This document shows, one piece after another, positions 1,995 to 46,110 of a DNA stretch of 64,000 nt. This DNA is from Pegea sp. RAD2-039. Its lineage: Eukaryota; Chordata; Thaliacea; Salpida; Salpidae. Position 1 is the stretch's first letter; every line of letters begins with the position of its first letter. The notes below the pieces were generated by a model. It made no database searches. It saw only the letters and a program-made list of their open reading frames with translations, and had not been told where the DNA came from. Location of the stretch: contig JAQGEQ010000345.1 of NCBI GenBank assembly GCA_034620365.1, forward strand, positions 186,001 through 250,000, given 5' to 3'. The position numbers and the translations under genes are program-made.

Positions 1995-2110
1995 TCTGAA
2001 CTGAATTAAATCTGCCTAACCAATCGACAAAAAGGCTACTGAGTATGATGTGCGTGCAGCCCTAGAAATAATTTCACATTGATTGGTTACATGCGAGTAC
2101 CATAAAATTA
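1995..2110 (-). promoter_or_regulatory. FAU promoter/leader with TOP-like start and CCAAT-type boxes
   Basis: Read on the minus strand, a CCTTTTTG tract with its first C near 2035 precedes the ATG by about 40 nt. This fits the 5' terminal oligopyrimidine (TOP) start of ribosomal protein mRNAs. ACCAATCA lies further upstream, near 2080. The transcription start is inferred, not shown. Confidence 0.4.
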
Positions 2111-12251: not shown

Positions 12252-12261
12252 TATGAAGATA

Positions 12262-24803: not shown

Positions 24804-25457
24804 TTAACAAGTTGTTGGGACAGAGTAGCAGTGATGTGGGACAGAATAGCAATGGTGTGGGACAGAGTAGCAGTGGTGTGGGACGGAGTAGCAATGGTGT
24901 GGGACAGAATAGGTACGGTGGATACGGTGGACACGGTGAATACGATGAACTGGACGGCAATGATGATATCCACATCCTAAGGTGTAGTAGTGGTGTGGGA
25001 CCTTGGCACAATATCCACGGAACTTTGGTGGAGCACCTAGAACCAAGGTTTAAACTTTGTTCAAATTTTCAAAATTCTTTGATTAAAAATAATCAAACTT
25101 ACATGAAGTGTAACTAGTGGAACACTTTGGAACACTTGGAGTATAACAGCTAGTTGATGGAGCAACAGATGGAGCAGCACATGGTGAGTAGCAGCTGGTT
25201 GAAGAGACTGGAGTTGTACATGGTGAGTAGCAGCTGGTTGGTGAGGCTGGGGCAGCAGTAGTTGAGCAAGATGGGTTGAAACTGGTGGCCACATTTGGGG
25301 TTGAACATGTAGTTGGGGTTGCTGGAGTGAAGATAGCGTCACATGGGTCAGAAGTGGTTGAGCTACCACCACTACCAGTACCGGTACCACTACCAGAAGA
25401 AGTAGCTGCAGCAAAGCCGACAATAGCGAAGAAGACAATCCACTTTTGGAAGTTCAT
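24804..25457 (-). CDS. Secreted Ser/Thr/Pro/Cys-rich protein, cluster member 1
   Basis: First of seven paralogues. Exons 25457-25103 and 25036-24804, joined in phase 1 (T|GT, a Cys codon) over a 66-nt intron, encode 195 residues. Exon 1 gives the signal peptide MNFQKWIVFFAIVGFAAA, a Ser/Gly linker, the block SDPCDAIFTPATPTTCSTP, and repeats of the type TSCYSPC. Exon 2 gives PKFRGYCAKVPHHYY, LGCGYHHCR, HR-V/I-HR repeats and four SVPHHCY heptads of 21 bp. I recognise no known family. Secretion is clear from the signal peptide. The Tyr, His and Cys content suggests a cross-linked or metal-binding structural or adhesive material, which is inference. Confidence 0.85.
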
Positions 25458-25523
25458 TTTTATTCGTAGATGTTTGAATCAAATCAAATTTTAACTGAAT
25501 GATAATTTGCTTTATGTTATGAG

Positions 25524-25531
25524 CTTTTATA
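25524..25531 (-). promoter_or_regulatory. TATA box of cluster member 1
   Basis: TATAAAAG on the minus strand, 67 bases upstream of the ATG, at the same distance as in the other members. The leader between (ATTCAGTTAAAATTTGATTT, then CGAATAAAAATG) is shared with members 6 and 7. Confidence 0.7.
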
Positions 25532-27045
25532 CATTTGACATCAAAACAAAGCACCTACTCCAAGCAACCTTTAATCTTTATATTTTTGAAGTTATGACAA
25601 TACAGTCTGTTTACCTAATAGAAAAGTTTTGATAGACAATTACTAGACACCAAGGGTGACTTATTTTAAATATTGGTAAACTTGTACAACCCACCTTAAT
25701 TAAAGTGCTTACATTATCATTAGATGCAAGTGGTTTTATTTGTTTTTTAGAAGAATACTTCCAATAAATTTAATATTCTTTATCATCTCGCTATTTCTCA
25801 AAGACGTTTAATTAGTTCTAACTTATAAACAAAGTTATTTTTTGATAAATGTATAACCTGCGGAATGTTTATTTTTGTCTAATTTATTTTTAGTAATCAT
25901 CAGGTTTGAAAATAAATTTTAATTTGTTAATAAATTAATATAAATTTTTATTCAGTTTTTTATTCTAACTATAATTTTCTTCTAAAATTATTCAAATTCG
26001 TTTGAAGCTGTTTAAACCTCTTAAGAGCTTCGTAAGTATTGATATTAAACAATTTTTATATCTTCAGTCTTAAGCCAATCTAAAAATACAAATAGAATCT
26101 TTTAGTGTTTCTACAATCTATTTTTCTGAGTTCTGTATATTTTATATTAAAAATAGATTATTTTATCTCTTTGTGAATAATTTTTCTATAAAGGAAAAAC
26201 AACTTTAATAGATTTAGTTCTTAATAATATATTCATCTAAATGACACAATAATAATTCCAATATTGATAATAATAAGTAGATTAGTAAATCTACAGGATC
26301 ATTTCTAATTTAAATAGTATAAAACTTGTATAAAACATTAAAGCCCTTATTAAAACTGATAAAATAACTTACTATTTAACTTATATTATCAAATTATACA
26401 AGCATTAAAAGCTTTTTTTATTTAAAATAGAAAATACTATTTACCAAAATTATTAATAAAATTAGTCTACAAAATTGGATTTTGATTCAAAGTATAGTTT
26501 GTCATTTTATAAAGTATAAAAAATGTCATCTATCAAATTAGAAATTTTCAATTGTCATCTAGCAATTGTCACAAGTATGATTGATTAGTGACATTTGAAG
26601 TATTGTGACAAATCCTAAATGTTAAAGTTATTACTAAAAAACAGATCAGATGAATCGACGAAGTATTTAAAATAACTTCTTTTGATATTCAAAAGAAGCT
26701 ACAAGTACTGAAGTTCAAATTCACTGGCTGATTGGTTGTTGATGTAAAAGTTTATGTTAAATGGCTTTGAATAAACTTTTAAAAATATTTGAATGATTAA
26801 TTGTTATGAAATTAGCAAAGAAAAGAAAAAAATAAAAGCTAATTAGTAAACACAACTAAAACGAAAATGTTGAAATGTTAACAGCTCATCAAAATGCTTT
26901 TGAAACTGTTTGTGAATTTTAAACATTTAAAGGTAATCACTTTTGACTATCAAAACTTATTTAATAGTTTTGATTGATTTGATTCTCTTAAAACCAAATG
27001 ACAATTAAAATGTCAAAATTTTGTTTGTTTTGTTTTGAAATCAAG
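25532..27045. other. AT-rich region between divergent cluster members 1 and 2
   Basis: Shared upstream region of a minus- and a plus-strand family member. There are short repeated words (TGTCATCTA, 26523-26571) but no open frame of note. Confidence 0.45.
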
Positions 27046-27053
27046 TATAAAAG
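27046..27053 (+). promoter_or_regulatory. TATA box of broken cluster member 2
   Basis: TATAAAAG 70 bases before the old start codon. The promoter looks intact although the gene is not. Confidence 0.6.
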
Positions 27054-27115
27054 CTTACATCATTCACCAATTATCATTATTTACACATTTGATTTGATTC
27101 AAGTATTAGGAAAAA

Positions 27116-27700
27116 ATGAAATTTCGATAGTGGATTGTCTTCGTCACTATTGTCAGCTTCGCTGCTTTTACTTCTGTGAGTGTTAATTCTTCTGGCTCTG
27201 GTCCTGGTAGTGGATCTGGTAGTGGTGAATCTTCAACAAAACCCATGTGACGCTATCTTCACTCCAGCAACCCCAACTACATGCTCAACCCCAAATGTGG
27301 CCACCAGTTTCAACCCATCTTACCCAACTACTGCTGCCCCAACCTCATCAACCAGCTGCTACTCACCATGTGCTACTCCATCAACTAGCTGTTATACTCC
27401 AAGTGTTCCAAAGTGTTCCACTAGTTACACTTCATGTAAGTTTGATTATTTTAATCAAAGAATTTTGAAAATTTGAACAAAGTTTAAACCTTGGTTCTAG
27501 GTGCTCCACCAAAGTTTCGTGGATATTGTGCCAAGGTCCCACACCACTACTACAAATTAGGATGTGGATATAATCATTGTCGTCCAGTTCATCGTGTCCA
27601 CCGTGTCCAACGCAATTACTCAGTCCCACATAACTGTCCCAAAAACCTGCTACCCTGCTCTAACAGCTTGTTTACTATGGGTGAGTACCCATATCTCTGA
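27116..27700 (+). pseudogene. Cluster member 2, broken secreted-protein gene
   Basis: Same two-exon plan (27116-27435, 27501-27700). The signal peptide is diverged and interrupted: MKFR, then an in-frame TAG where the family has Lys (QKW), then WIVFVTIVSFAAFTS. After a Gly/Ser run a further frameshift separates the start from the otherwise intact block NPCDAIFTPATPTTCSTP and the CYSPC repeats. The splice sites and second exon remain (PKFRGYCAKVPHHYYKLGCG, then PVHRVHRVQRNYSVPHNC), but the C-terminal heptads have decayed. Very close to member 7 in exon 1. A dead copy unless it starts elsewhere or is recoded. Confidence 0.8.
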
Positions 27701-28639
27701 ATGGATCTGTATTTTGGAATTTATTTGTTTCAAAACATATTCTAACTATCTTGAGTTCATTCCAAAAACTACATCTGAATTTTTAAACTTTTTTATGGCC
27801 GAATCTTTGAAATTATTGATTTAATTTAATTTATTAAAACACGTTGGATTACTGAAAGTTGCAAGAAAGAAATTTAGAATTGTAATTCTCATGTTGTTTA
27901 TTCATGAATTAGAGATTCATTAAACTTTTATCAGTCTATTTACGTCAAATTTAAAGTTTAAAATTTTGTTTTTGAAATAAAATTGGAAGCAAAACTAATT
28001 ATTTCACAAATAAATTTTTTAATTATAGTCTGAGTTTTGTTACATTTTTAAGGTAAACTTCATATATAAAAGTTTGAAGAAACTAATAAATCTTTTCATA
28101 TTCTTTCTTTAAAAGAATTTCTCTAAATTAAAATCAGTTAAAAACTGTTTTTTTTTATAAAAATAAACTTCAAAATGGCTTCGTTTAGTTAATTGATTTC
28201 CTATAGCTGCTAAAAACTGTTTGTAAAAAATATCCTAAGAAACCAGAGTGGTCTTTATATCAAAAATTAAAAAAGTAAATCTTTTTATGACGTTTTATTT
28301 TACGTTACAACAACAAATTACATTCGAAAGTTTAGAGTAAAATAAGTAATGATGGAAAAAATCAGATGAACAATTTCACAGATTTTAATCCCTGAATTTG
28401 TATTTGTTGAAGATAATTTGATATTCTGAAAAAAAAATCAGAAAAAATCAAGTTTACGTAATAACTAATCAGCGGAAAGCTTAGGTATCCTTAAATAGTC
28501 AAATATTTCTACGACTTTAATCTAAAATAAAAATAGGAAAGCATGAATTAAAAGTTACAAAATTAATGAATGCAAATTTGAAAAATAAAAATTCAGCAAA
28601 ATTATTGACGATTGTATATATTACCAAATCAAAAGCTGT
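27701..28639. other. Spacer between convergent members 2 and 3
   Basis: AT-rich with no gene. Holds both 3' flanks. Confidence 0.5.
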
Positions 28640-29125
28640 TTAGCAAGTAGTTGGTGGAGTGTAACAACCATGGTGTGGGGTGGAGAAGCAGTGATGGAAT
28701 GGGAAGGAGAAACAGTTACGGAAATGATGGAATCCACATCCAAACTTGTAGTGATGACTTGGGACCTTGGCACAATATCCAGTTTGATGACCTAAAATTT
28801 GAAAAAATACAAATCATATCAAAGAGATCTTCACTTCATTAAAGGTCTTTGAAGTTAATCTTACTTGGAACACAAGATGGAGAATAACAACTGCTGCTTG
28901 ATGGAGCTGGTGAGTGTGGACTGAAAGTTGGAGCAGCAGTAGTTGGGTAAGATGGTTCGAAGCTGGTAGCCATGCTTGGGGCTGAACGGTAGAGGTTGGT
29001 GCACTGAAGATAGCATCACAAGTTGGATCAGAAGTGACGGTACTGGAACCACCGCTTGAAGAAGAAGAAGTAGCTGCAGCAAAGCCGACGATAGCGAAGA
29101 AGACAATCCACTTTTGGAAGTTCAT
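28640..29125 (-). pseudogene. Cluster member 3, secreted-protein gene with a one-base deletion
   Basis: Exons 29125-28865 and 28791-28640. Nearly the same as member 6 (39676-40171). The signal peptide MNFQKWIVFFAIVGFAAA is perfect. In the block corresponding to SAPTSTVSAPSMATS, one A is missing compared with member 6 (plus-strand CTGAACGG at about 28982 against CTGAAACGG). This throws exon 1 out of frame and would make a different, stop-terminated tail. Exon 2 on its own is intact (GYCAKVPSHHYKFGCG). Because only one base is lost, this is either a very young pseudogene, a polymorphism or an assembly error. Confidence 0.75.
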
Positions 29126-29193
29126 TTTTATTCGTAGTTGTTTACTTGATTTGATTCAAATATTGAAACATAATGATATGGCTGTAATGAAGT

Positions 29194-29202
29194 CTTTATA
29201 TA
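29194..29202 (-). promoter_or_regulatory. TATA box of cluster member 3
   Basis: TATATAAAG on the minus strand, 69 bases upstream of the ATG. Confidence 0.65.
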
Positions 29203-29864
29203 TAAATCAATAAAACCACTAAATAAACAAATTTCTCGGAATATGATCTACAAACTTTTCATCCTAGAAATACTAGTCTGGGAGTAAAAACAACAAGTTT
29301 TTTTATTTTTTATTTAAGTATTGTGTTGTATTCTTAAAAAAGCAATTTGATTTGGTTACAGGCGATATTTAATTAAATTAATAAAATTCTATCTTTAAAA
29401 TATTTTTGAAATGTTAAAAATCTGACGTTTTGATTTCTTTTCAAAAACTAGGAAAACTTATAGACTCTCTCCAATAAAAATATAACATTGAATATTTTTA
29501 ATTTTGGTACAAAACTATTTATTTGTTATACAATCATCTATATATAAGATAGTAGTTTTCGAATAAAACAAATATGTCTGGTTTCAGAATTGGTTTTGAT
29601 ACTGGGTATCCTGGCTCAAATCTTTCATAGCTAATCAACTACACCAAGCATAGAAAGTTTTTTTTTATAGAGAAATTGTAACATAGTCATTGAAAACGAA
29701 CAACTACAGAAATAAAATACTTTTAAGTTGGCGTACATACTTCTTAACAATAAATATCAACATCATCAGATGTTTATTACTTCTTAACTGATTTGCATTT
29801 TTAATTTTATTCTATTGTAGCAAGTTTAATAAAGTAAATTATTTTCTACATTCATTATTCAGTA
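29203..29864. other. AT-rich spacer
   Basis: No gene or repeat recognised. Confidence 0.45.
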
Positions 29865-30045
29865 ATTATTCACTATTATATCGTTTGGGGAGTACTAAAT
29901 TATCTATGCTGACTACTTGTTACATCTTTATTTTTTTTTATTTTCAACTTAATTATATATAACAGGTAAAATATGTGAGAATGTGTGTTGGCTTTTTTGA
30001 GGAATCTCTCTTCGCGTTTATTGTAATGAATAAATAAAATTTTTC
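29865..30045 (+). mobile_element. 3' tail of the local non-LTR retrotransposon family
   Basis: The segment GTGAGAATGTGTGTTGGC at 29973-29990, the following CTCTTCGCGTTTATTGTAATGAATAAATAAAA (given here as two joined words: 30008-30022 and 30023-30040) and weaker upstream similarity match the ends of the elements at 52.4 kb and 57.8 kb. Only the last 180 bases or so remain, as expected for a 5'-truncated insertion. It lies inside the secreted-protein cluster. Confidence 0.65.
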
Positions 30046-31609
30046 TTATGCTTTTAAATGTAATGTTTACAAAAAATAATAACTTTAATAGTCAAACAAT
30101 CAAACTAAAAAGAGAAGAAAAGAAAATGAAATTGTTCTGATGACAGATATGTGCCGAAAAACTAATAAAATTAATAAAGTCAAAATGGTGTGATTATATA
30201 AGATACATATCAACTGCTTATTATAAAAATGTTGAAAATGACTTTATTGTGATTCACTTTACGGATTTATTTTGTAGGAAAAAATAATACTAAAGCTTTT
30301 GTTGCTGATATCACTTGATAAATTTATCTATTTTACGATAAAAACCGATTTTAATGAATACTTCAAAGCTTATTTAAACTATACTTGTGAAACTTTTAAC
30401 AAATTTATTAATTATTGTTTCATTAAAATATAAGTAATTTATCTAATCAAGAAAATAATTCAATTAACAATTTTTTGAAAATACTTTGATACACTAAAAT
30501 ATTTATTGAGTTATTTTGATATAAAACTGTTGATGTATTTAAAGTACTTTCATAGTTTTTTAGTTTATAGCTTTTATACAGTAGGTAGTCTGATTTTTAA
30601 TTGACTAAAATATTTATTGAGTTATTTTGTTATAAAAAAGTGTGTTCCGTACATTAAGTTTTTCTGTAATGATATAAAACAAATTTTATAAGATATCTTA
30701 TCAGGAATGAAGACATACTCAGAGAGTTTAATTTAATCTGTAAAATTTTATATTTGACAAAAACTTTATTTTATTAACCATGATTTATTTGTTTCACTAA
30801 AGTAGACTCAGTAACGGAGATTTTTGGTTTGATGGTGGAAATAAAAGTCATATATTATTTATTCGGTTATTTAATAAGTATTTATTTACAGAAATTAGTT
30901 AATCAAGAATTATTATCAAATGAAATGATTTCATTTGGCGATGCAAAAACTCAATCTCATCAAACTTAATATAATTTAAAACCTAGAACCACAGAAAATA
31001 TATTTGATATTTCAAGGTTTTAGACAAAAGATGAATAAATTTGAGCCAACAAACTTAAATAAGAATCTGAAAAATATTCAAAGTAATTTTCTTATAAATA
31101 AATTTATTCTTTTTTGTATCATAACCCCTACCCATCGGCAAATAGTGCCACTGTCTTGTAGTTGCTTCAAGAGAAACAAAGTCAATGAGAGGAAATTTAT
31201 AACTGTTGGTCTTGAAGTCACTTTCACGTACCATTATTTCGTGATACTGAGCATAAAACATGAAGAGGATACAATTCTCTCTTTAATATTATCAAACCTT
31301 ACGTGCAAACATGAAGAAAGTATGAGTGTCCTTTCATCTACTGTTAAGGCATACAAAGCTCAACTTAAATAATTTAAATCAATTGATTAAAAAAAGTTTT
31401 TGACAGCTAGTAAAAGAATGAATTTAACTTTAAAATGATATTTAATGTGCGAACATTGTATGAACTGTTTGTATTCCTTTAACCTACATATAAGTATCAA
31501 AGAAAACTAAATGTTAAATTTAAATTCAAACATCAAGTTCAATGCAGAAATAGAATCTCAATTATCAGCAGCATGAAAGTTTGTTTTATTTCTTATTTGC
31601 AATTAATTA
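30046..31609. other. AT-rich spacer with no supported gene
   Basis: Overlapping frames at 31004-31372 (plus) and 31055-31261 (minus) look slightly less random than their surroundings but have no motif, splice structure or family match. I do not call them. Confidence 0.4.
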
Positions 31610-31817
31610 TAAATTCGACCTCAAACAAACACCGCGGATTTTATTCAAAACTATTAAACACTTGAAACCAAAGTTTCAAAAAGTTGGAATATACAAACTA
31701 GAATTATTCAACTATAAAAACAAACAATAAAACAAGAATTGACAAACAAGTATTCAATTATCAAGTGTGTATATGTATATATAACAAATTATTGTTTGCT
31801 TAACAAACTAATATCAG

Positions 31818-31826
31818 TATATAAAG
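31818..31826 (+). promoter_or_regulatory. TATA box of cluster member 4
   Basis: TATATAAAG followed by GGAACTTG, 67 bases before the ATG, identical in position and sequence to member 5. Confidence 0.75.
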
Positions 31827-31884
31827 GGAACTTGCCTGACGAAAATTATCGCATTTTATTATTTGAATAGAATAGTAAGCAACA

Positions 31885-32499
31885 ATGAACTTCCAAAAGT
31901 GGATTGTCTTCTTCGCCATTGTAGGCTATGCTGCAGCCAGCTGCTCTAGTGTTCCAGATACTTGCTATGAACCATCAACTTGTACTTCAAGCTATGTACC
32001 AGCTTCATGTGCCCCAGTAACAACTTGCGCTGTCCCAACATCTTCATGCACCGTCCCAGCTTCTTCATACTGTGCCCCAACAACTACTAGCAGCTGCTCC
32101 CCATCATGCTACACTCCATCAACTTGCTCATCCAGTTATAGTCCATCATGTTGCGCTCCAGTCCGTACTTGTGCCCCAGTCCGCACTTGCGCCCCAGTTC
32201 GCACTTGCGCCCCAGTTCGCACTTGTGCCCCAGTTCGCACTTGCGCCCCAACTACCTGCTATGCTCCATGTAAGTTTTCTTTTTTAATAAAAGATTGAAT
32301 CATCTATTTAAGATTAATTACTTTTGACAATCTCTATCTAGGTGTTCCAAAATTCCGTGGATATTGTGCCAAGGTTCCAAGCCACTACTACAAATTAGGA
32401 TGTGGAAGTCGTCATTATCGTCGTGTCCACCGTGTCCGTCGTATCCACCGTACCTACTCAGTCCCACATCAATGCTACACCATCCCACATTGTTGTTGA
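31885..32499 (+). CDS. Secreted Cys-rich protein with APVRTC repeats, cluster member 4
   Basis: Exons 31885-32269 and 32342-32499, phase 1 junction, 180 residues. The signal peptide MNFQKWIVFFAIVGYAAA matches the other members. The mature exon-1 part is quite different: many Cys in CxPSTCSSSY-like units followed by five tandem APVRTC hexapeptides and APTTCYAPC. Exon 2 is the conserved module PKFRGYCAKVPSHYYKLGCG, then RRVHRVRRIHRTYSVPHQCY and CC at the end. The strongly patterned Cys suggests a disulphide-linked, keratin-associated-protein-like material; that is an analogy, not homology. A 3' UTR intron seems present (donor after the stop near 32527, acceptor near 32709), with AATAAA near 32858. 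Confidence 0.88.
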
Positions 32500-32890
32500 G
32501 CAGCTACAGAAGAGTTAGGAGTTAAGTAAGTTTCATTTTTTCTATTTGAGGTCCGCTGCAGCGTAATTTTATAAAAAAATAATCAACAACTTTTGTAATT
32601 AAGATATTTAAATATGAGAGATTTGAACTTTGACTCAATTTATTTAATATTAGTTAATCGCTTACTTAACTTCTAAGATCAATTTTTAAATAATAAGTTT
32701 TCATTTACAGATTGGTTAACATTCTCTAATGAGCAGATCTTCAAGTATCCAACGATTTGTTTCCAGTCAATCTTTTGATGTCTTCATTTTGTATTTGACT
32801 TGAATTACAAAATTGTTTTTCTTGACTCTTTCTTGTTATTACGAATGTGATCAAAAATAAATCCTAATGTGAATCAAATTTACCTTTAAG

Positions 32891-34271
32891 TTATTTATTA
32901 AGCCCAGAGCTTGAAGATTTTTTTTTATACTTTCTTGATTTTTAAAACATTGAATATTAACTGAAATCTCAGAGTTTAGATACTGATTTATGTAAGTCTT
33001 ATATGGCTAAATACTTGTAATTTATTATGAACATTCAGCAAATGTTTACTAATAATTTTGTATAGAATATATTTAAGCAAACGTGAATGAAGTATACTTT
33101 CAATAAAGCAGAGATAGAAAGGATATAGTGTATCATCTGAGTTTTTATCAAAGCTAGAGCTTTGAGATGAATTTAAACTCAGAAATAATAAATCAAATTA
33201 AACCATAATTACAAGATGATTTCGAGTCACCGAAAATTTCTGCTAAAAAAATCCGAAATGTTTTTCTTGTGTCTTTAATTGTAATCTAAAAGTTATTACT
33301 TTTCAAGGGTTTTATTTTAGTACTTATTACTACTTTAAATATTTTTTCATTTCTTTTACTTTACTGTCATCTTTTACTATTATGCTTATATTTATTTTAG
33401 ATTTTAACACTTAAAATTTTATTTTTTATTGTTTTTTTCCTCTTATTTTAACTTTTTCATCATAATTTTTTCAATTTTAGATAAAGATACATTTTAATTT
33501 ATCTTCGTCCATCTAATGAGTAATCTAAACGAATAAATTCTTTTAATCAGTTTATTTGATAAATTCGTTTATTATCAAGTGATGTTTTGTCACTTACAGT
33601 CTTTTATTTTTTATAATTGATGATGTTATGATACGACTTTGGCTCAGAAGTCAGTTTTGTAAACCAACATTTGATAATTCCTTTTCTGAATTCATCATTT
33701 TAAAAAATTTTTCTTGTTTCGGTTTCATCATCTTTTTTGCGACAAAAAGTTCTTTACGAAACGCTCTTCAATTTAAAAAGCTTTCGTTTAAGAGCTACCT
33801 AGTATAAGAATAAACTGTGGAGTATATAGATAAAGATGATCGTCTCTTAGACCCACTAACTGACTAGCCATTTTCTATGAAAGACTTTAAATCAATTCAC
33901 AAACTGAAATAAGTGTTCTGATCATATTTTTGAAAATGTCTTTTGAACATTAAAAATAATTTTATATATAAACGCTAATTAATTTAATTATTAAAAACTG
34001 AATAAAATATTTTCATGATAATATTTATTTGATTCTTTTATTTCTTATCAATCAAATTTAAATAGAATTGAGTTTTTGATGAAAAATAAACAATCTAATC
34101 ATATTTCTGATAGATTGAAACGATACTGTCACTTATTCTTAGTAAACTGCTTATATAAGTCCAAACTAAAATGAAGTATTTGCTTATTTACTTGCACTGC
34201 TGCAGATAGTAAATCAAACCGCTTTTAAAGTGGACTTAATACAAAATTACTCCAGAGAACTAAAAGTAAAA
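32891..34271. other. AT-rich spacer
   Basis: No gene seen on either strand. Confidence 0.5.
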
Positions 34272-34652
34272 ATGTCTCAAAGACCACCGCTCAGTATAAA
34301 TGATGTAGAAATGGGAACACAGCGAAGATATTAAAGAGCTTAGAATTAAAAAACTGCAAAAAGAGAAAATGAAGAAAATAATACCAAACATATCGCTTGT
34401 CAACAAAATGACTCAAATTACACTTTTATAATTTAATTATTCTAAAATGAGAATTTTCTGTAGTGGTGGAGTCATCATGAAGATACAAGCCGTGGTTACC
34501 TTATTGAAAAAGCTAAAGACCATTGGAGAGATATTGAAGTTTTTCATTTAATTAATCTTGAACAACAAAACTCAGAGAAAATAGAAAATATTACAGTTTT
34601 TAAAGAAATCATTAAAGTTAAAACTGAAGTTACAAAACGTATAAATAATTAA
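34272..34652 (+). pseudogene. Probable broken two-exon gene of unknown family
   Basis: The ATG at 34272 begins MSQRPPLSINDVE, then the frame is lost by what looks like one extra base, after which a frame reads WEHSEDIKELRIKKLQKEK. A good acceptor (TTTTCTGTAG) at 34463 opens an exon reading WWSHHEDTSRGYLIEKAKDH and then WRDIEVFHLINLEQQ, to the stop at 34650-34652. The composition (Trp, His, charged residues) is protein-like and unlike the surrounding random frames. No family recognised. It could be a pseudogene, or a real gene whose exons I have not resolved. Confidence 0.4.
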
Positions 34653-36844
34653 TAATAATACAAAGTCAGAATAAAAGCGTCTGTATTATAAGGACTCAAT
34701 ATTACGCTTTTAGAGAAGGTCTTTGTGTAAATAAAAGGTTATACCACATCTAACCTTTCTTAGTAAACGATCTTTGAACGGATTCTAGCTTAAAATTATA
34801 TTTTATAGGGTGAGAACTCCTAAAATAAGAGTTGAATTTTAACTATAGACAAAAGTATGTGGGTAAAATTTCAACAGTGTTCAGATATTTATATTCTTAA
34901 AGAATTTGCTAGTTTGATGTATAAAATCTGAACTAATTATGATCAGATAGTTTACCTAGGGAACCTATTATAGGTGATGGAAGATGAAAGTCTTTAATGG
35001 CAGGACATTAATAAATTTTGCTGATTCTCAAATAGAATTCCGATAATACTGCGTTAGAATGAGAAAGTTTATTAATTGAAAGATTTGTATATCGCTAGCT
35101 TGAGTTGTCTAAATTACAGCCATAGGTTGTGTGAAGTATCTTACTTATCTAAAATTCGAGAAGCAACAGTTTGTTCGTATTATTTGTTCGAAATTAGAAA
35201 AACGTAATTAGAAAATTTAATTCTTGTTTATTATTTTAAAAGAAACTAATATTTACTTCGTTGCGAGAAAACAAAATAATATCTTTTTCACAAATAATAC
35301 TTTGTATGAGGAAAAGAGTATGTCACATCTAAGGAAAGCTTTTGTGATAAATGATTTTTGAACGGATTCAAACCTTGTAACATCTTTTTTAAGGTGAAGA
35401 CTGCATACAAAAGAGTATAATTAACATTTAAATCTAATAATCACAATTATCATTTTGTATATATTACAAAGAGTTTTTAAATTAAGTAATTTTTAATTTC
35501 AAAATTTAAGTTATTTTGGTGATGAATAAAACTTTGAAGCAAATGATTAAATTATGCTTAGATATGATGCCCTTATACAATAGTAAAAACTAATTTTTTT
35601 TCATCAGTAAAACTTTTGACTAGAAATTCTACTTATAAACCAAGTTTGCATCAAAGGTTAGAAACTTTCTATGTCATTACATAAGCATGCTTATTTCTAG
35701 TTTTTTTTTAGGTGTTAACTCTTCTAAAGGTAATTATTAATTTACAGAATATTACGAGCTAGAAGTTGAAATCATTTTTAGATAAAAATAAGCTTTTTAC
35801 TGTCACTAGCACTATTTTAATTCTATGACTTTTTCGTATAATATACTGCTCTAGATGAAAATACAAAAGTATATTGAACGAAATGAGAACTTTTATTTTA
35901 AACTAGGATTATCTCAAACATTTAAACGGTTTTAAAAACTTTTTTAATTTATAAAGATATTCTGAAAGTTTTTTTTTGGAATTTGAAAACTATTTTTGAA
36001 TGTTTGAAATTAATTTCTGCCTTTTCTCTTATGTTTTTCAATGGATTAAAAACAAAAATCTCGTTTTAAGTAAATATATTTCAGTTTCAGGTTAAAAAAT
36101 AATCTTTAGTTTAATAAGTTTATCTAAACTTGTAATCAAAAACTACAAATTATATGTTTTGTATTTTTTATTAATATCTTTTCACAAATTTATATTATCC
36201 TTTACCAAATTAAGTTTGTTGAAACAAATAATATGTTTAAACTGAAAAATTCTTTGTAAATCTGCTGGGATATTTGTAAACCAACTTGCAGACCAGAAAC
36301 CATTTACTTTTTATCACAGTATATCTCGCTTCTTCAGATTTCATTCAAACCTTGTAGCCAGGAAAAATTTAAATTAATAGAATTTACTTTGACTTGGCAA
36401 ACATTTTCAAACAAATATTATCTCAAACTCTTAAAAGATTTAATAAGACACACATCCGATAGAACCTGAAATCGATACATTACAGATTTCCTTCCTTTAC
36501 GAGACCAAATGCAAGTGACTTCTTTGAAGTAACTGTTCTACGAAAAACTAATAAAAATTGAATCTACTGTCATGAGAAATAAAAAAAAATAAATTTTGTT
36601 AATTTAGCAGCTTAAATAGTTTGTTTGATAAAAAAGAATTTATTTATTTCTTTATTTGTAAAGATTTCATAACTTGATTTTTCTTTAAAGTTTATAAACA
36701 TTCATTGTAAAGTCGAGCTTTAAAACATAAAAAGACTTGAGTTATAATGTTTAATTTTAACAATTAAATAAAAAATAGCAGCAAAAACCTGTAATATCAA
36801 TTTACTTTACAGTTTGTTTAATAGAAAACTATAACCTGTAAAAT
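34653..36844. other. AT-rich spacer with a diverged internal duplication
   Basis: Two related blocks, about 34730-34850 and 35306-35430, share ATACCACATCTAA/ATGTCACATCTAA, a GATCTTTGAACGGATTC-like word and a following AAGGTGA/GGGTGAGA. They may be decayed copies of one repeat. No gene. Confidence 0.35.
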
Positions 36845-37023
36845 CAACTCAAACAAACACCGCGGTTTTATTGTAAACTATATAACACTCGAAAACAAAG
36901 TTTCAAAAAAATGAAATATACAACTTCAAAACTATTCAAATACAAAAACAAACAAGTATTCAATTATCAAGTGTGTATATGTATATATAACAAATTATTG
37001 TTTGCTTAACAAACTAATATCAG

Positions 37024-37032
37024 TATATAAAG
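37024..37032 (+). promoter_or_regulatory. TATA box of cluster member 5
   Basis: TATATAAAG 67 bases before the ATG, in sequence nearly identical to member 4. Confidence 0.75.
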
Positions 37033-37090
37033 GGAACTTGTCTGACGAAAATTATCGCATTTTATTATTTGAATAGAATAGTAAGCAACA

Positions 37091-37687
37091 ATGAACTTCC
37101 AAAAGTGGATTGTCTTCTTCGCCATTGTAGGCTATGCTGCAGCCAGCTGCTCTAGCGTTCCAGATACTTGCTATGAACCATCAACTTGTACTTCAAGCTA
37201 TGTACCAGCTTCATGTGCCCCAGTAACAACTTGCGCTGTCCCAACATCTTCATGCACCGTCCCAGCTTCTTCATACTGTGCCCCAACAACTACAAGCAGC
37301 TGCTCCCCATCATGCTACACTCCATCAACTTGCTCATCCAGTTATAGTCCATCATGTTGCGCTCCAGTCCGTACTTGCGCCCCAGTCCGCACTTGCGCCC
37401 CAGTTCGCACTTGTGCCCCAGTTCGCACTTGCGCCCCAACTACCTGCTATGCTCCATGTAAGTTTTCTTTTTTAATAAAAGATTGAATCATCTATTTAAG
37501 ATTAATTAATTTTGACAATCTCTATCTAGGTGTTCCAAAATTCCGTGGATATTGTGCCAAGGTTCCAAGCCACTACTACAAATTAGGATGTGGAAGTCGT
37601 CATTATCGTCGTGTTCATCGTGTCCGTCGTATCCACCGTACCTACTCAGTCCCACATCAATGCTACACCATCCCACATTGTTGTTGA
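37091..37687 (+). CDS. Secreted Cys-rich protein with APVRTC repeats, cluster member 5
   Basis: Exons 37091-37457 and 37530-37687 encode 174 residues. Protein is the same as member 4 except for having four APVRTC hexapeptides where member 4 has five (an 18-bp length difference). Nucleotide changes are otherwise almost all silent, which points to a recent duplication, gene conversion or protein-level constraint. Signal peptide, Cys-patterned middle and conserved basic His/Tyr second exon as described for member 4. The 3' UTR terminal exon starts near 37990; AATAAA near 38152. Confidence 0.88.
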
Positions 37688-38180
37688 GCAGCTACAGAAG
37701 AGTTAGGAGTTAAGTAAGTTTCAACTTCTTTGATTCTAGATTTGTTGTTCATTTTCAGCAATTTAAACTTTAGTTAAAAAAGCAAAAAGTTTTGGAAATC
37801 AACAGATGTTTTTGAAAGCAATTATTTTGAAATTTTATTTTTAGTTTCTGACTTTATATTATCAAAAAACTAATTAGAATTTGTTCTCAATCACAGATGT
37901 TTAATTTAGGATCAAATATAGTTTTAAATGAAGAGTATTTATTTCTGATTCGATTTAAACATTTTGATTAAACGAATTACTTATTTAGGTTGATGATCAT
38001 TCTCTAATGACCAGATCTTCAAGAATCCAACGATTTGTTTCCAGTCATTCAATCTTCTGATCTTTGACTTTGATCTCTTCATTTTGTATTTGACTTGAAT
38101 TACAAAATTGTTTTTCTTGACTGTTTCTTGTTATTACGAATGTGATCAAAAATAAATCCTAATGTGAATCAAATTTAATT

Positions 38181-39675
38181 GCAAGTTTTTTATTCCTGAG
38201 TCTTTAGAGTTTTTCAGAAAAGTTTAACTTTCTAAAAAAGTTAAAACTAAAATATTTACTATAATGTCTGAATTGATTAGTGATTTAAATATAAACTATT
38301 ATATATATAATTAATATAGATTAAATTATAAATATAAATAAAAGTTTTAACATTTTACACATTATTATCGTAATAACAAAAGGAGCGACTGAAAAAGTTA
38401 AAAGAAAAAAAAAGTAAAGTAAAATCAGAATGATCTGATAAACTTATCTTCTTTTAAGTAATTTTATTATAGTTTTTAAGTATCTAAATTTGAAATTATC
38501 TCAAACTAAATCTTGTTAAATTTTTGTGTTTAAGAGTTTTTTAAACTTCGCTTTTCAGCCATCAGTAACCTAATTCGAATATAAAACTTTTTTATGAAGT
38601 ATGATAAGTAGAAAAGAAGAAAATATTTTCTAAAGAATTAATTATACCCTATCAGAAATATTTTTTACCTCATTATACCTTTATTTAACTAAATGTAAAA
38701 TTTACTGGTATTTTGTTTATAAACTGCAGAGTTATATTAACTGTATTTAAGTTATTACCTTCTAAAACATATACTTTTAATTTTGTTCTAAACATAATTT
38801 TGCTTGAGAAGGTGTTGTCAAATTTTTATGTTAATTATTTGTGACTAAGTCACCTTGTCTTGCATATATGTATTATTTTGGTTGGTTTAAGTTCTCTCAA
38901 AATATTTCAAACAGCAAATCAAGTTTTTAGTTTCTTTATTCAATTTATTCGTGATAAACATGAAATTAATTACTTTGGCGAAACAGTTTACTTATCCTTT
39001 ACTTTCCAGTTAAACCATTTGAATACTAGAAAACAAATTCATTGAAAAGTTGTAAATTTAATCCTCGTTAATTTAGCATTTTATCTCTGTTTCAATATTC
39101 ATTCTACAAAAAAAACGATTTTGTTATAAGTTAAAAACGTAAAAAATATTTCTGAAATGTCTTTTACAAACGTAAACTATTCAAACATTCATTAACCAAC
39201 AAGAAAAAATTAATTCTATGCAAAAAACTTTAAGCAATTTAGATCTAACTAACAAACAACATATCAATAACCTCACTAAAAGTAATTTACTTTTGCAAGA
39301 ACTAAACAGCTTATAAATTACTTTACTTGGTTTATTAAAAAATAGATTTACAATTATGTATTTTAAAACTTAATATTAGAAACTATTACAAATATTATTA
39401 TATTACTATTACTATTAAAACTATATAATAATATTGATTAATGTAAATTGAAACTACAGAAATATAACCAAGAACCTTGAGTATAAAATACGACCCAAGA
39501 ACATCTTGAAAACATCAAAAGCTTTTAATAAAGAGAAATAATTTTAATATTTCAATTCATACAATCGACTAGTTTCTCTAAAAGCTGATATTCACTTGGC
39601 TTAATGAACAAACTATCAAAAACGTAAATAAGATTAATTCAAAAAGTTGAAAAACACAAACCTGAATGAAGCTGT
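38181..39675. other. AT-rich spacer between members 5 and 6
   Basis: No supported gene. A 46-codon frame ending near 39316 (QQEKINSMQKTLSNL...) has a coiled-coil look but no start, splice or family support. Confidence 0.4.
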
Positions 39676-40171
39676 TTAGCAAGTAGTTGGTGGAGTGTAA
39701 CAACCGTGGTGTGGGGTGGAGAAGCAGTGATGGAATGGGAAGGAGAAGCAGTTACGGAAATGATGGAATCCACATCCAAACTTGTAGTGATGACTTGGGA
39801 CCTTGGCACAATATCCAGTTTGATGACCTAAAATTTGAAAAAATACAAATAATATCAAAGAGATCTTCACTTCATTAAATGTCTCTGAAGTTAATCTTAC
39901 TTGGAACACAAGATGGAGAATAACAACTGCTGCTTGATGGAGCTGGTGAGTGTGGACTGAAAGTTGGAGCAGCAGTAGTTGGGTAAGATGGTTCGAAGCT
40001 GGTAGCCATGCTTGGGGCTGAAACGGTAGAGGTTGGTGCAGAGAAGAAAGCATCACATGGGTCAGCAGAGACGGAACCGGAACCAGAACCGGAACCAGAA
40101 CCACTTCCAGAAGAAGTAGCAGCAGCAAAGCCGACAATAGCGAAGAAGACGATCCACTTTTGGAAGTTCAT
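39676..40171 (-). CDS. Secreted Ser/Gly/Pro-rich protein, cluster member 6
   Basis: Exons 40171-39901 and 39827-39676 encode 140 residues, the shortest intact member. Signal peptide MNFQKWIVFFAIVGFAAA, a (SG)n run, DPCDAFFSAPTSTVSAPSM, a Pro/Ser-rich stretch and CYSPSCVPS. Exon 2 (SHQTGYCAKVPSHHYKFGCG, then FHHFRNCFSFPFHHC and CYTPPTTC) keeps the GYCAKVP core but replaces the basic HRVHR repeats and Tyr of other members with Phe-rich sequence, so this pair (members 3 and 6) forms a separate subgroup. It is the functional sister of the broken member 3. Confidence 0.87.
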
Positions 40172-40239
40172 TTTTATTCGTAGAAGTTTGAATCAAGTCA
40201 AATTTTAACTGAATGATGATAACTGGTAAGTTACCTGAT

Positions 40240-40247
40240 CTTTTATA
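40240..40247 (-). promoter_or_regulatory. TATA box of cluster member 6
   Basis: TATAAAAG on the minus strand, 69 bases upstream of the ATG. Confidence 0.65.
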
Positions 40248-41206
40248 AGTTTAACTACAACACTATGTAAACATTAGTCGTTCAAATAATTTGCTATTTA
40301 TAAAACTTGTAATCACAAAATACTATCAAAAAACTATTAAGTTGAAATAATGATACAAAATAAACACAGCAATTAGTTCTTTTATACAGGTAACCTCAAT
40401 TAATTAGCATTTATTTACTTTTTAAATTATTCTCACAATAAAAAAGTGGTGTTTGCATCACTAAGTCTTCATGTTCAAATGAATAATTCTGTGATTAATA
40501 GTTTTGTTTCTAATCATCACTAACTATTACAACCAAAACTAAGATTTATTATTTTCGTTTTCATTAATTATTTACTATATTAAGTAAAATAAAATTACAA
40601 AATTCTTTTTATAATTTGATTTTCTTTCTTCGTTTGATTTTTTTAGTTTACAATTAATCAGTTCAAAAGAATAATTCTTTCCCTATCTTGTAGCAAGTAG
40701 TTTCTATAACTTATACTTTTCGTTTTATTTAAAATTAAATATCAGAAATTAGAAATAAAATGTTAGATAAAAGATTAATCTGAATATTTGGTATCAAAAT
40801 TTTAATAACTTTATAATTTCCTAATGCTAAATAATATCCATATTTGTTTGATTAAAAAATCGTCAAAAACAAACTTGTAGATCTCAAAATCTCTCATAAA
40901 ATTCCACATTGTTAACATTGTAACAGTTTGAACTAATAATCATCAAACATAGATAGTTTCAGACAAAAAAATAAATTTTCATCATAAACAGATTGTTAAA
41001 TGAAAATGTGGTTCTATTTAAAACAACATTTATTTGATTTTAATTGTACTTCATTTCAAGTATGTCAATTAACTTACCTCAACTGCAGAAACTCACTACA
41101 GATAAACATTAACTTATCAAGATGATTGACAGAAGTTATAATAATAATTATTGATGAGTTTTTAATGTATCACAATATTAATGTTTATTTTACAGAGAAA
41201 CTTATC
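40248..41206. other. Shared upstream region of divergent members 6 and 7
   Basis: About 1 kb of AT-rich DNA between two divergently transcribed family members. It must contain regulatory sites for both, but I can point only to the two TATA boxes. Confidence 0.45.
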
Positions 41207-41215
41207 TATATAAAG
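41207..41215 (+). promoter_or_regulatory. TATA box of cluster member 7
   Basis: TATATAAAG 73 bases upstream of the ATG; the leader that follows (ATCATTCAATTAGTATTTGA) is close to that of member 1. Confidence 0.65.
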
Positions 41216-41279
41216 CAAATTTTAAACTCAGTTATCATTCAATTAGTATTTGACTTGATTCAAACATCTACGAATAAAA

Positions 41280-41860
41280 ATGAACTTCCAAAAGTGGATC
41301 GTCTTCTTCGCTATTGTCGGCTTTGCTGCAGCTACTAGTATGAGTGGTTCTGGTGGATCTGGTAGTGGTGGTAGCTCAACCACTTCTGACCCATGTGACG
41401 CTATCTTCACTCCAGCAACCCCAACTACATGCTCAACCCCAAATATGGCCACCAGTTTCAACCCATCTTACCCAACTACTGCTGCCCCAGCCTCACCAAC
41501 CAGCTGCTACTCACCATGTGTTGCTCCATCAACTAGCTGTTATACTCCAAGTGTTCCAAAGTGTTCCACTAGTTACACTTCATGTAAGTTTGATTATTTT
41601 AATCAAAGAATTTTGAGAATTTGAACAAAGTTTAAACCTTAATTCTAGGTGCTCCACCAAAGTTCCGTGGATATTGTGCCAAGGTCCCACACCACTACTA
41701 CAAATTAGGATGTGGATATCATCATTGTCGTCGTGTTCATCGTGTCCACCGTGTCCACCGTATCCACCGTACCTACTCTGTCCCACATCATTGCTACTCC
41801 GTCCCACACCACTGCTACTCTGTCCCACAAACCTGTTACTCTGTCCCAAAGACTTGCTAA
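41280..41860 (+). CDS. Secreted Ser/Thr/Pro/Cys-rich protein, cluster member 7
   Basis: Exons 41280-41583 and 41649-41860 encode 171 residues. Closest to members 1 and 2. Signal peptide MNFQKWIVFFAIVGFAAA, Gly/Ser linker, SDPCDAIFTPATPTTCSTP, TSCYSPC and TSCYTPSVPKCSTSYTSC. Exon 2 has PKFRGYCAKVPHHYYKLGCG, HHCRRVHRVHRVHRIHRTY and four heptads (SVPHHCY, SVPHHCY, SVPQTCY, SVPKTC). The alternating His/Arg/Val tract and Tyr/Cys heptads would suit metal or oxidative cross-linking, which is inference. The 65-nt intron sits at the same codon as in every other member. Confidence 0.88.
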
Positions 41861-43968: not shown

Positions 43969-46014
43969 TCAATCAGCAACAACATTTTTCTTCCGTTTAA
44001 ACTTCCGCAGTCTTTCATATTTGATTGTTTCCGACTCTAAGAGACTCAACTCTTGAATTCTCTGTTGAAAAGATGAAGATGAGGCAACTAAGGGGTCAGT
44101 GTAGTGATGCTTGATCTTGTTGCCATGGCTACCAAGATCGCTGTTGTTCTTTATTAACTTGCGGTTTCTAAGCAAATAAAAAGCATCAGATGCTGATGAA
44201 GAGATGGTCACCAACTTTATGGACGAATTGGACATTTTGGACTCTGTACGGCTGGATGAAGTGGTCGGTATTTTGTTGGTTGACATCTTAGCAAGGGAAG
44301 TATGTAATCCGTCCCCGTTGACTAGAAGGCGGTTATCTATCGCTGTATTGAATTGAATTACAAAAAAGCTTTTTATCGAAAATGGCCCCAAAATTTACGT
44401 TTTTGATAAAAAGGATCGATCTTTGTCGGTGAAGATCCTCTGCTGCTCCTTCCTCCAGATGTTGACCACATCGCGCGTTGAGGAAGAAAACTTGATATAC
44501 GGATCGTAGAGGGAGTTACAGGATCAGATGGGACTCGACAGAGCTGTTCTTTGCGATCTTGAGAAGCTGGAAGATATGGATGAATAGATGAAGATCATTT
44601 TAAAGATCTCTTACTCTTCTCAGATACTTGTAATAATGTCATGGGGACAAAAGAAGATTTTTCAACGTCACTGTAACAAAGATCATTAGAAGAAGATCAC
44701 GAAACCGATGACGTCACTTACTTCTTCTTCTTCTTCCGTCGCTGATGTCCTAAAAAGAAAACTGAAGATTAAAAAAAAGATCAGAAAGAAGTCAGAGTTA
44801 CTTTTGGTGACGTCATCAAAGAGCGGATGATCTTTGACGGAGGAGGAGCTTCGAACTGCCATCGGAGAACAACTGAAAAAGAAAATCAAAATTACCAAAA
44901 TACAAAAACGATTTTCTCCTCACTCAGAATTGTCGATTCGAAACGTGCTTAGTGACGTCATCACTAATTTGTCACCATCGTCGCTAATCGCGTCACGTGA
45001 CTGCGTCAAATCGCTGACGTCACTATCAAAATTACTTAGCTTCATTTTACAATCGATGACGTCATCACAGCGTGCGTCATCGTTTGCTGATTTCGCAAAA
45101 GTCTCGCTTCTGATGTCACATGACGAATCTCCGACGCGATTCGTCTTTAAAGATCGAATCACAAAAGACTCGACTGGTCGAGGATTTCTCAAAGATCGCT
45201 CCTCAACTTCCGGTTTTCGTTTTCGGCTTTTTTTCAAAACTTTTTGCTTCCGAAAAACCCCCGGTGATGACGTCATCACTTCTTCACTACCGTCGATGAC
45301 GTCATCATCGATGCGAACCAAATCGAACACGAGTGTGTTCCGCCGACCCTTTAATCGCGAGACAAGCATCTTCAACTCGCGTGACGTCATCGTGGCGCGA
45401 CGTTTCGTCTTCCGGGAATTCCCTCGTTTTGCAAAAGTCGAAGTGAGCGCGGGAGGCTCGATGGTGACGTCACGTGATTGTTGTTGTTGCTTAGCAACAA
45501 CTTCACGAACGTTGACGACTGTTGGAAGTTTCGTTGAGTTTGTAAAAGAGTGGAAAAGATCTGGTTGAGAGGTTGGGAAGAAGATCTCAGATTTGTGATC
45601 ATCAAGGATCGGAGATGAGATCGGAGTTGATGGGGGAGTCTTCTTCATCCAGTCTGTGACGTCACAACCGCTAAAAATACGACTCAAATCTGCATCTAAT
45701 TCAGTCTTCAGTGATAATCGATCAAGATGTGACGTCATGATGACGTCAGTGAGTGACTCGAGCGGTTGGTCGTCCATGTGGACGGTGGGCAAGATAATTG
45801 GGCGACAAGTGGTGCCCCGTGATGACGTCATCGACTTCTCGTCGTTTTGCTTAACTTCTTTTTGTGATGACGTAATCGTTTGTGAGGCTTCGATTTGCGG
45901 CGATGACGTCATGTTTTTGTGGTTGCCATGGTGATAGGACAGGTAGATGGGCACGTTAGTGAGGTTGGGCAGATATTTTGAGGTCAGATTATTTTTCAAT
46001 TCTAATTTATTCAT
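43969..46014 (-). CDS. Large disordered protein, unrecognised; coding DNA packed with TGACGTCA
   Basis: Six exons (46014-44924, 44872-44802, 44749-44722, 44670-44615, 44566-44399, 44342-43969) with introns of only 48-56 nt and consistent phases encode 595 residues. I chose MNKLELKNN as the start, just below a 19-bp tandem repeat; the frame opens a few codons further upstream without an ATG. The protein is rich in Ser, Thr, Lys and Arg with no domain I recognise. It contains basic stretches (KTKRRATMTSRELK, RKQKVLKKSRKRK, RHQRRKKKK) suggesting nuclear entry, a DPFYQK motif, and a charged, probably helical C-terminus (SFQQRIQELSLLESETIKY, then ERLRKFKRKK). The minus-strand GC content is well above its neighbours. 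A nuclear or cytoskeletal scaffold is possible, but function is unknown. Confidence 0.75.
44709..45911. promoter_or_regulatory. Dense field of CRE/ATF palindromes (TGACGTCA)
   Basis: By eye, 14 perfect TGACGTCA sites start at 44709, 44808, 44953, 45015, 45057, 45268, 45297, 45382, 45465, 45657, 45730, 45741, 45823 and 45904. Four are within the 12-bp palindrome GATGACGTCATC. TGACGTCA is the canonical bZIP (CREB/ATF) binding site. I found only three more in the rest of the window (20736, 21608, 54594). One lies in an intron and the others in exons 1 and 2 of the gene at 43969-46014. Binding is inferred from the motif only. Confidence 0.6.
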
Positions 46015-46020
46015 TTTTGA

Positions 46021-46110
46021 TTCAAAAGATTTCTGATCTTTCAAAAGATTTCTGATCTTTCAAAAGATTTCTGATCTTTCAAAAGATTTCTGATCTTTCA
46101 AAAGATTTCA
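46021..46110. repeat. 19-bp tandem repeat just upstream of a start codon
   Basis: The unit TTCAAAAGATTTCTGATCT is repeated four times without change (46021-46096) and then partly (46097-46110). The array begins only 7 bases upstream of the chosen ATG (46014-46012), so it occupies the 5' leader or proximal promoter of that gene. As 19 is not divisible by 3 the array cannot extend the coding frame. Confidence 0.95.

What the first reader, a model, noticed from the sequence alone, without database searches (positions are those of the whole stretch)
24804..41860. Seven-member cluster of an unrecognised secreted protein family
Seven genes over 17 kb share the signal peptide MNFQKWIVFFAIVG(F/Y)AAA, an intron at the same Cys codon, and a second exon built on GYCAKVPxHYYKLGCG with His/Arg and Tyr/Cys repeats. 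I know no family with this design. The secreted, Cys/Tyr/His/Ser-rich and repeat-based make-up resembles structural, adhesive or egg-covering materials. This is the best candidate in the window for a previously undescribed system.
Basis: partly seen in the sequence, partly recalled or inferred. Interest (0 to 1): 0.88.

Follow-up and report, generated by a model that had tools for sequence, protein, structure and literature searches.

The report
Undescribed tunicate secreted repeat-protein family
A tunicate's genome carries a family of small secreted proteins, rich in cysteine, tyrosine and histidine and built on one shared 14-residue module, that matches no described protein family searched here and is probably a building material of the animal's surface or glue.

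Summary
Seven loci lie at 24804-41860: five are intact (g1, g4, g5, g6, g7) and two are broken (g2: stop at codon 5; g3: one-base frameshift). All seven share one phase-1 intron site; the split codon is Cys in five, Ser in two. The cluster is only part of the family: searches of the same genome gave ten more loci on four other contigs, 17 in all, 14 with intact two-exon models. The 14 share the core YCAKVPxH[YH]Yx[LF]G[CL]; 14 of 14 have a TATA box 67-78 bases before the ATG and 13 of 14 a donor-like site just after the stop. The host is a tunicate: cellulose-synthase/GH6 gene and Ciona-type spliced-leader arrays. Nine proteins scanned reach no Pfam cut-off, no PDB sequence matches, and three unnamed metagenome-type proteins are the only relatives found. 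Best reading: a lineage-restricted family of secreted proteins cross-linked outside the cell into a material. Tissue and function are unshown, and no tunicate proteome could be searched.

The parts
24804..25457 (-). g1: intact gene, 195 aa; exon 1 25457-25103, intron 25102-25037, exon 2 25036-24804; CYSVPHH-type 7-aa repeats and a VHR/IHR run
27116..27690 (+). g2: pseudogene of the g1/g7 type; TAG at codon 5, frameshift in exon 1, different end (end coordinate approximate); exon 1 27116-27435, intron 27436-27500, exon 2 from 27501
28640..29125 (-). g3: g6-type copy with one base fewer than g6 in exon 1 (frameshift); exon 1 29125-28865, intron 28864-28792, exon 2 28791-28640 open in its own frame; broken or a sequencing error
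31885..32499 (+). g4: intact gene, 180 aa; exon 1 31885-32269, intron 32270-32341, exon 2 32342-32499; CAPVRT 6-aa repeats, 24 Cys in the mature part
37091..37687 (+). g5: intact gene, 174 aa; tandem copy of g4 with one repeat fewer; exon 1 37091-37457, intron 37458-37529, exon 2 37530-37687; 8 synonymous and 0 nonsynonymous codon differences from g4 over 174 codons
39676..40171 (-). g6: intact gene, 140 aa; exon 1 40171-39901, intron 39900-39828, exon 2 39827-39676; split codon is Ser; no VHR run
41280..41860 (+). g7: intact gene, 171 aa; exon 1 41280-41583, intron 41584-41648, exon 2 41649-41860; VHR and CYSVPxx repeats
24816..24912 (-). 21-base tandem array = 7-aa repeat CYSVPHH in g1 exon 2
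32151..32250 (+). 18-base tandem array = 6-aa repeat CAPVRT in g4 exon 1 (matching array in g5 at 37357-37438)
41773..41848 (+). 21-base tandem array in g7 exon 2
31610..32535 (+). tandem-duplicated segment carrying g4 (92.8% identical to 36839-37723, which carries g5)

Best explanation
A lineage-restricted tunicate gene family encoding small secreted proteins (mature about 11-19 kDa) that are cross-linked outside the cell into a surface or adhesive material. SHOWN from sequence: a conserved N-terminus with the form of a signal peptide; a first exon that diverges between subfamilies and is rich in Ser/Thr/Pro/Gly in most; a conserved phase-1 intron; a second exon with the core YCAKVPxH[YH]Yx[LF]G[CL] and, in most subfamilies, short Cys/Tyr/His repeats that vary in copy number; a TATA box at a similar distance in every intact gene. 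INFERRED: strong expression in one specialised secretory cell type; Cys (intermolecular disulfides), Tyr (di-Tyr or DOPA) and His (metal coordination) join the chains, while the Ser/Thr/Pro/Gly part is an extended, possibly O-glycosylated spacer. Which material it is (tunic or cuticle, larval adhesive, egg envelope, mucus) is not determined.
For: Seventeen loci on five contigs, 14 intact; core in 11 of 11 distinct proteins tested. Purifying selection in the recent pair g4/g5: 8 synonymous, 0 nonsynonymous codon differences of 174; g1/g7 dN 0.059, dS 0.154. TATA at -78 to -67 in 14 of 14 (background 5.9% per 25 bases) and GTRAGT within 45 bases after the stop in 13 of 14 (background 2.3%). Mature composition of four of the five intact window genes (g5 not in the call): Ser 15-22%, Cys 7-15%, Tyr 4-8%, His 4-9%, Pro 12-13%. 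Mature Cys count 4 to 24 and odd in several (9, 13, 17, 5), no N-glycosylation sequon in 11 of 11: unlike a fixed disulfide fold. Three unnamed proteins from other sequence sets resemble exon 1 of three subfamilies with the frame kept. Tunicate host. A review of ascidian bioadhesion reports sulfhydryl-containing proteins in adhesive granules of some species (PMC4275875, passages); many Oikopleura house proteins lack known domains and almost a third arose by duplication (PMC3390340, abstract and parts 1-3 of 7).
Against: No transcript, protein or tissue evidence. The C34 and C258 subfamilies are Cys-poor (4-6 Cys) and slightly acidic (pI 5.9-6.2), so Cys cross-linking cannot be the whole story for all members. 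The same PMC4275875 passage says that DOPA-forming enzymes could not be localised to ascidian adhesive organs and that phenol tanning was considered unlikely, which counts against the DOPA step if the material is a larval glue. Selection evidence is not uniform: C28_453/340 has 3 synonymous and 4 nonsynonymous codon differences, the C21 pair 1 and 1. Several subfamilies are near-identical copies, so the 14 genes are about seven independent cases.
Confidence: 0.6

Rival explanations
1. Secreted host-defence peptides or their precursors: a cationic Cys/His-rich C-terminal part released against microbes, as in several ascidian antimicrobial peptides.
For: Duplicated small secreted genes; g1, g4, g7, C28_453 and C21_1347 are cationic (charge +7.6 to +13.7 at pH 7). 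Ascidian tunic proteomics reports antimicrobial peptides (PMC7401272, passages), and Cys-rich ascidian peptides have been purified (PMC7024374, search listing only).
Against: g6 is neutral and C34 and C258 members slightly acidic; the core is conserved while Cys number and spacing vary (gaps listed), unlike defensin-type folds; the rusticalin Cys spacing was found in 0 of 10 distinct sequences.
Confidence: 0.14
2. Metal-handling proteins: His/Cys repeats bind copper, zinc, iron or vanadium in secretory granules or blood.
For: VHR/HH and CYSVPHH repeats in the g1/g7 type; ascidians form DOPA and TOPA in blood cells that bind metal ions and vanadium (PMC4275875, passage).
Against: His-rich repeats are not universal (no VHR run in g6; C34 lacks such repeats); no conserved metal-site spacing was seen outside the core.
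Confidence: 0.1
3. Diverged members of an already characterised tunicate family (tunic, adhesive papilla or vitelline-coat protein) that the libraries available here do not hold.
For: No tunicate proteome was searchable; the protein search returned only unnamed ENA/lgn entries.
Against: No Pfam cut-off reached by any of the 9 distinct proteins scanned, nothing in PDB at E<=1; motif GYCAKVP in 0 papers.
Confidence: 0.22
4. Not functional: satellite-like or decaying duplicates.
For: 3 of 17 loci are broken.
Against: 14 intact two-exon models, only synonymous changes in g4/g5, the same TATA and splice architecture across five contigs, frame-keeping relatives elsewhere.
Confidence: 0.03

Closest known systems
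Oikosins, house proteins of Oikopleura dioica (PMC3390340)
   Same: Secreted tunicate proteins, many without known domains or relatives, some in duplicated paralog groups
   Different: Oikosins are an assemblage defined by isolation from the house, not one sequence family; 59 of 80 begin M(K/R)(I/L/F), which 0 of 10 distinct sequences here do; this host carries the Ciona-type spliced leader (its identity and its difference from the Oikopleura leader are recalled)
Rusticalin and relatives (PMC6339383, passages)
   Same: Small secreted ascidian protein with Cys-rich repeats
   Different: Its Cys spacing was found in 0 of 10 distinct sequences here, and no peptidase domain by Pfam
Pfam PF21827 New_glue
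   Same: Weak match over signal peptide and Ser/Thr-rich part in C34, C258 and g6 (3 of 8 aligned members, best E 0.0087)
   Different: 11.2-16.2 bits against a cut-off of 31; no match to the exon-2 core
High-sulfur keratin-associated proteins and the His-rich mussel foot protein mfp-4 (both recalled, not tested)
   Same: Short Cys- or His-rich tandem repeats in cross-linked materials
   Different: Resemblance of composition only; keratin-associated proteins have no signal peptide (recalled)
Brachionus mate-recognition MMR-B (PMC3495898, passages), considered while the host was unknown
   Same: Signal peptide plus repeats in multi-copy secreted genes
   Different: Repeats of 261 bp; primer site absent from this genome at up to 3 mismatches; host is not a rotifer

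Membership tests
Oikosins (tunicate house proteins) | Isolated from the pre-house rudiment / expressed in oikoplastic epithelium | not testable with these tools
   No expression or protein data; definition from PMC3390340
Oikosins (tunicate house proteins) | N-terminal M(K/R)(I/L/F), seen in 59 of 80 oikosins (frequent, not universal) | tested here: not met
   0 of 10 distinct sequences
Oikosins (tunicate house proteins) | Host is an appendicularian | tested here: inconclusive
   Ciona-type spliced leader present 272 times against 0 in the control argues against Oikopleura (leader identities recalled); class not settled
Rusticalin-like proteins | Cys spacing Cx6Cx6-7Cx8Cx7CC | tested here: not met
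   0 of 10 distinct sequences, strict or loose
PF21827 New_glue | Score above the curated cut-off of 31 bits | tested here: not met
   g6 11.2, C34_122 16.2, C258 15.6 bits; 3 of 8 members match weakly
Any Pfam-A family | Score above a curated cut-off | tested here: not met
   9 distinct proteins scanned at E<=1; best matches Serglycin 17.8 of 30 bits, New_glue 16.2 of 31, HCMV_UL116 14.3 of 30, Cementoin 10.8 of 27
Family defined here | Core YCAKVPxH[YH]Yx[LF]G[CL] in exon 2 after a phase-1 intron, signal peptide with W-I-[VI] | tested here: met
   14 intact loci; core pattern in 11 of 11 distinct proteins

The most novel reading that the evidence does not exclude
A tunicate-specific extracellular building block: one 14-residue Tyr/Cys/His module, combined with fast-evolving 3-, 6-, 7- and 8-residue repeats, that polymerises through disulfide, tyrosine and histidine-metal cross-links to make a previously unknown component of the tunic, larval glue or egg coat.
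Probability: 0.25. Interest if true: 0.65.

Novelty: new member of a known kind. Interest (0 to 1): 0.45.

Why it matters
[quoted passage not shown] A compact, sequence-defined family with intact genes, similar promoters and measurable repeat variation gives a direct target for in situ hybridisation and proteomics, and possibly a new design for wet-setting protein materials.

Tried and rejected
Host identity. Rotifer (Brachionus) was considered from genome size and GC (PMC11954553, passages) and rejected: mmr-b primer site absent at up to 3 mismatches. Arthropod and nematode were rejected by no match for the cuticle families PF00379 and PF01484 while homeodomains gave 71 matches; the 14 control genomes rang for none of these three families, so the two negatives are moderate evidence. 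COX1 gave none, so no mitochondrial contig was found. Tunicate accepted (Hox12/Hox13-like pair, named from recalled sequences and compared with PMC7337526, passages). The GH6 match that began this is weak by itself (27.5 bits, cut-off 27).

Database routes that led nowhere: viral contigs (13 stretches, none confirmed; 26, none); genome contigs, which hold prokaryotes (17, none); g4 against 5.77 billion proteins, none of 3120 candidates; PDB. Paper searches for rotifer adhesives (none) and egg material, ascidian adhesive and tunic proteins gave background only. Of the 29 matches, four were dropped: three on C293 (an 887-aa ORF whose APIRSQ repeats lack Cys) and C257:218154-218246 minus, the antisense of the g4 repeat. 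An 8-mer comparison of upstream regions listed no word shared by more than two of seven subfamilies.
Full report
OBSERVATION. The start motif ATGAAYTTYCARAARTGG occurs without mismatch at six places between 25440 and 41297 (a seventh match, at 16593 with two mismatches, lies outside the cluster). With g2, whose start is degenerate, seven loci were modelled. g1 (25457-24804, 195 aa), g4 (31885-32499, 180 aa), g5 (37091-37687, 174 aa), g6 (40171-39676, 140 aa) and g7 (41280-41860, 171 aa) are intact. g2 (from 27116) has TAG as its fifth codon and a frameshift; g3 (29125-28640) has one base fewer than g6 in a T run and so shifts frame in exon 1, while its exon 2 is open. All seven have one GT-AG intron of 65-73 bases at the same place after a phase-1 break; the broken codon is TGT (Cys) in g1, g2, g4, g5, g7 and AGT (Ser) in g3, g6. 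tblastn of four of the proteins over the window and 6 kb on each side found no other member (repeated with eight proteins, 78 matches, all in the window; one minus-strand stretch over the g4 repeat is its antisense).

DUPLICATION. The loci form three types: g1/g2/g7, g3/g6 and g4/g5. g4 and g5 sit in tandem segments 92.8% identical; g3/g6 are 92.7% and g1/g7 86.5% identical over their aligned DNA. g4 and g5 differ by 8 synonymous and 0 nonsynonymous codons of 174, plus one 18-base repeat unit; g1/g7 give dN 0.059 and dS 0.154. This is what selection on protein sequence leaves. Other recent pairs are less telling: C28_453/340 3 synonymous and 4 nonsynonymous, the C21 pair 1 and 1.

THE FAMILY IS LARGER. 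A short hybrid query had found 13 exon matches, all in this cluster. The full g4 protein at E<=1 gave 29 matches: 14 on C257 (13 exon matches in this cluster and one antisense), 6 on C28, 4 on C34, 2 on C21, and 3 low-complexity ones on C293 that were rejected. A C28 exon-2 query gave 19 matches: 7 in the window (one per locus), 4 on C28, 4 on C21, 3 on C34 and 1 on C258. Reading the fetched DNA gives 10 more loci: C28 four (one with TAG in the core and no exon 1 found by tblastn), C21 two, C34 three, C258 one. Thus 17 loci, 14 intact; since only the best candidates are scored by that tool, 17 is a lower bound. All 14 intact genes have a phase-1 intron, with a Cys codon at the break except in g6 (Ser). 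The core YCAKVPxH[YH]Yx[LF]G[CL] is in 11 of 11 distinct proteins tested and can be read in the other three intact copies. Around it each subfamily has its own short repeats: HYCAKAPT (8 aa) and GCYxxP in C21/C28, CYSVPHH (7 aa) and VHR (3 aa) in g1/g7, CAPVRT (6 aa) in g4/g5. In a tree of 11 proteins, C34+C258 separate from the rest and C21+C28 group together; 2 of 8 inner branches are well supported, 5 are open, and long branches make finer order unsafe.

GENE ARCHITECTURE. Every intact gene has TATAWA 67-78 bases before the ATG (14 of 14; a random 25-base stretch of the window holds one in 5.9%), and 13 of 14 have GTRAGT within 45 bases after the stop (2.3% per random 45-base stretch; g6 is the exception). 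These are about seven independent subfamilies, not 14 independent events. Inference: a TATA-driven promoter of a specialised secretory cell, and an intron in the 3' untranslated part.

WHOSE GENOME. The window lies in a 105.7-Mb assembly of 387 contigs. Contig C14 holds a cellulose-synthase glycosyltransferase exon (PF13632 5.8e-17, PF03552 1.1e-7) followed on the same strand, less than 2 kb on, by a glycosyl-hydrolase-6 exon (E 1.2e-4, 27.5 bits, just over the cut-off of 27), with transmembrane-like exons between (by eye): the joined GT2-GH6 arrangement described for tunicate CesA (PMC7464555, passages). The 16-base Ciona spliced leader (recalled) occurs 272 times against 0 for its reversed control; the listed copies on C4 lie about 199 bases apart. 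Two posterior Hox-like homeodomains lie 22 kb apart, as Hox12 and Hox13 share a scaffold in Corella (PMC7337526, passages). I take it as a tunicate, probably not Oikopleura-like; ascidian or thaliacean is left open.

WHAT IS KNOWN. Nine distinct proteins were scanned against Pfam at E<=1 and none reaches a cut-off; the best are Serglycin (17.8 of 30 bits, g6), New_glue (16.2 of 31, C34_122; also C258 and g6), HCMV_UL116 (14.3 of 30, C258) and Cementoin (10.8 of 27, g4). PDB profile searches at E<=1 found none. Against 5.77 billion proteins, g7 found one, g4 none, an eight-sequence profile three (only the 8000 best candidates scored): P0001, P0002 and P0003, unnamed, from ENA and 'lgn' contigs, resembling exon 1 of the g7, C28 and C34 types; P0001 and P0002 end in extra residues of the kind an unspliced reading would give (by eye). 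They show that the family exists in other sequence sets, not in which animal. The motif GYCAKVP is in 0 of 5.39 million papers (a single spelling).

HOW IT MOST LIKELY WORKS. The N-terminus reads as a signal peptide (no predictor was run; the mature part is taken from residue 19). The mature chains have no N-glycosylation sequon in 11 of 11 and 4 to 24 Cys, with odd numbers in several, and Cys spacings that change from one subfamily to the next except the 11-residue gap inside the core (the C258 form has Leu for the second Cys). That argues against one conserved disulfide fold, as of a defensin, and for intermolecular bonding. With Tyr 4-11% and His 4-9% and variable short repeats, the simplest reading is a secreted material whose chains are joined after release. 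Ascidian adhesive granules contain sulfhydryl proteins in some species, while DOPA-forming enzymes were not localised there (PMC4275875, passages), which favours disulfides over DOPA if this is a glue. Tunicate houses contain many domain-less and duplicated proteins (PMC3390340), so tunic, adhesive and egg coat are all open. The Cys-poor, slightly acidic C34/C258 members may be a different component of the same material, or show that the core has another job.

VERDICT. The finding is right in kind, wrong in detail (five intact genes, not seven; one Ser type; ten more loci elsewhere). It is an undescribed, probably lineage-restricted family of a kind known from animals that build extracellular materials. 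Function remains inference.

Noticed in passing
G000:C4:1135044-1142217: Tandem array of the Ciona-type spliced leader (identity recalled), spacing about 199 bases; 272 exact copies genome-wide.
   Followed up: partly
G000:C14 about 72138-74718 (L033, L032): Tunicate-type cellulose synthase gene with joined GT2 and GH6 parts.
   Followed up: partly
L058 2982-6875; L057 3480-6671; L056 3355-6431: Paralogs outside the window lie as close inverted pairs 2-3 kb apart (C21, C34, C28), which may favour gene conversion or be assembly duplicates.
   Followed up: no
window 44920-46109: A 379-aa minus-strand open frame begins inside a perfect 19-base repeat (46021-46109, 4.7 copies, 100%); GC rises locally to 0.43.
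   Followed up: no
window 1605-2015, 12072-12296, 15993-16208, 20695-20985, 59244-60458: Neighbours: ubiquitin-like/RPS30 fusion, RPS21, SH2 protein, short-chain dehydrogenase, leucine-rich-repeat protein.
   Followed up: partly
window 51069-51721, 52029-52259, 57256-57579: Repeated open-frame fragments that look like pieces of LINE-type transposons (by eye, not tested).
   Followed up: no
window 43969-44394 minus: 141-aa open frame with a sub-threshold match to DUF5537 (E 0.00027, 21.1 against 28.4 bits).
   Followed up: no
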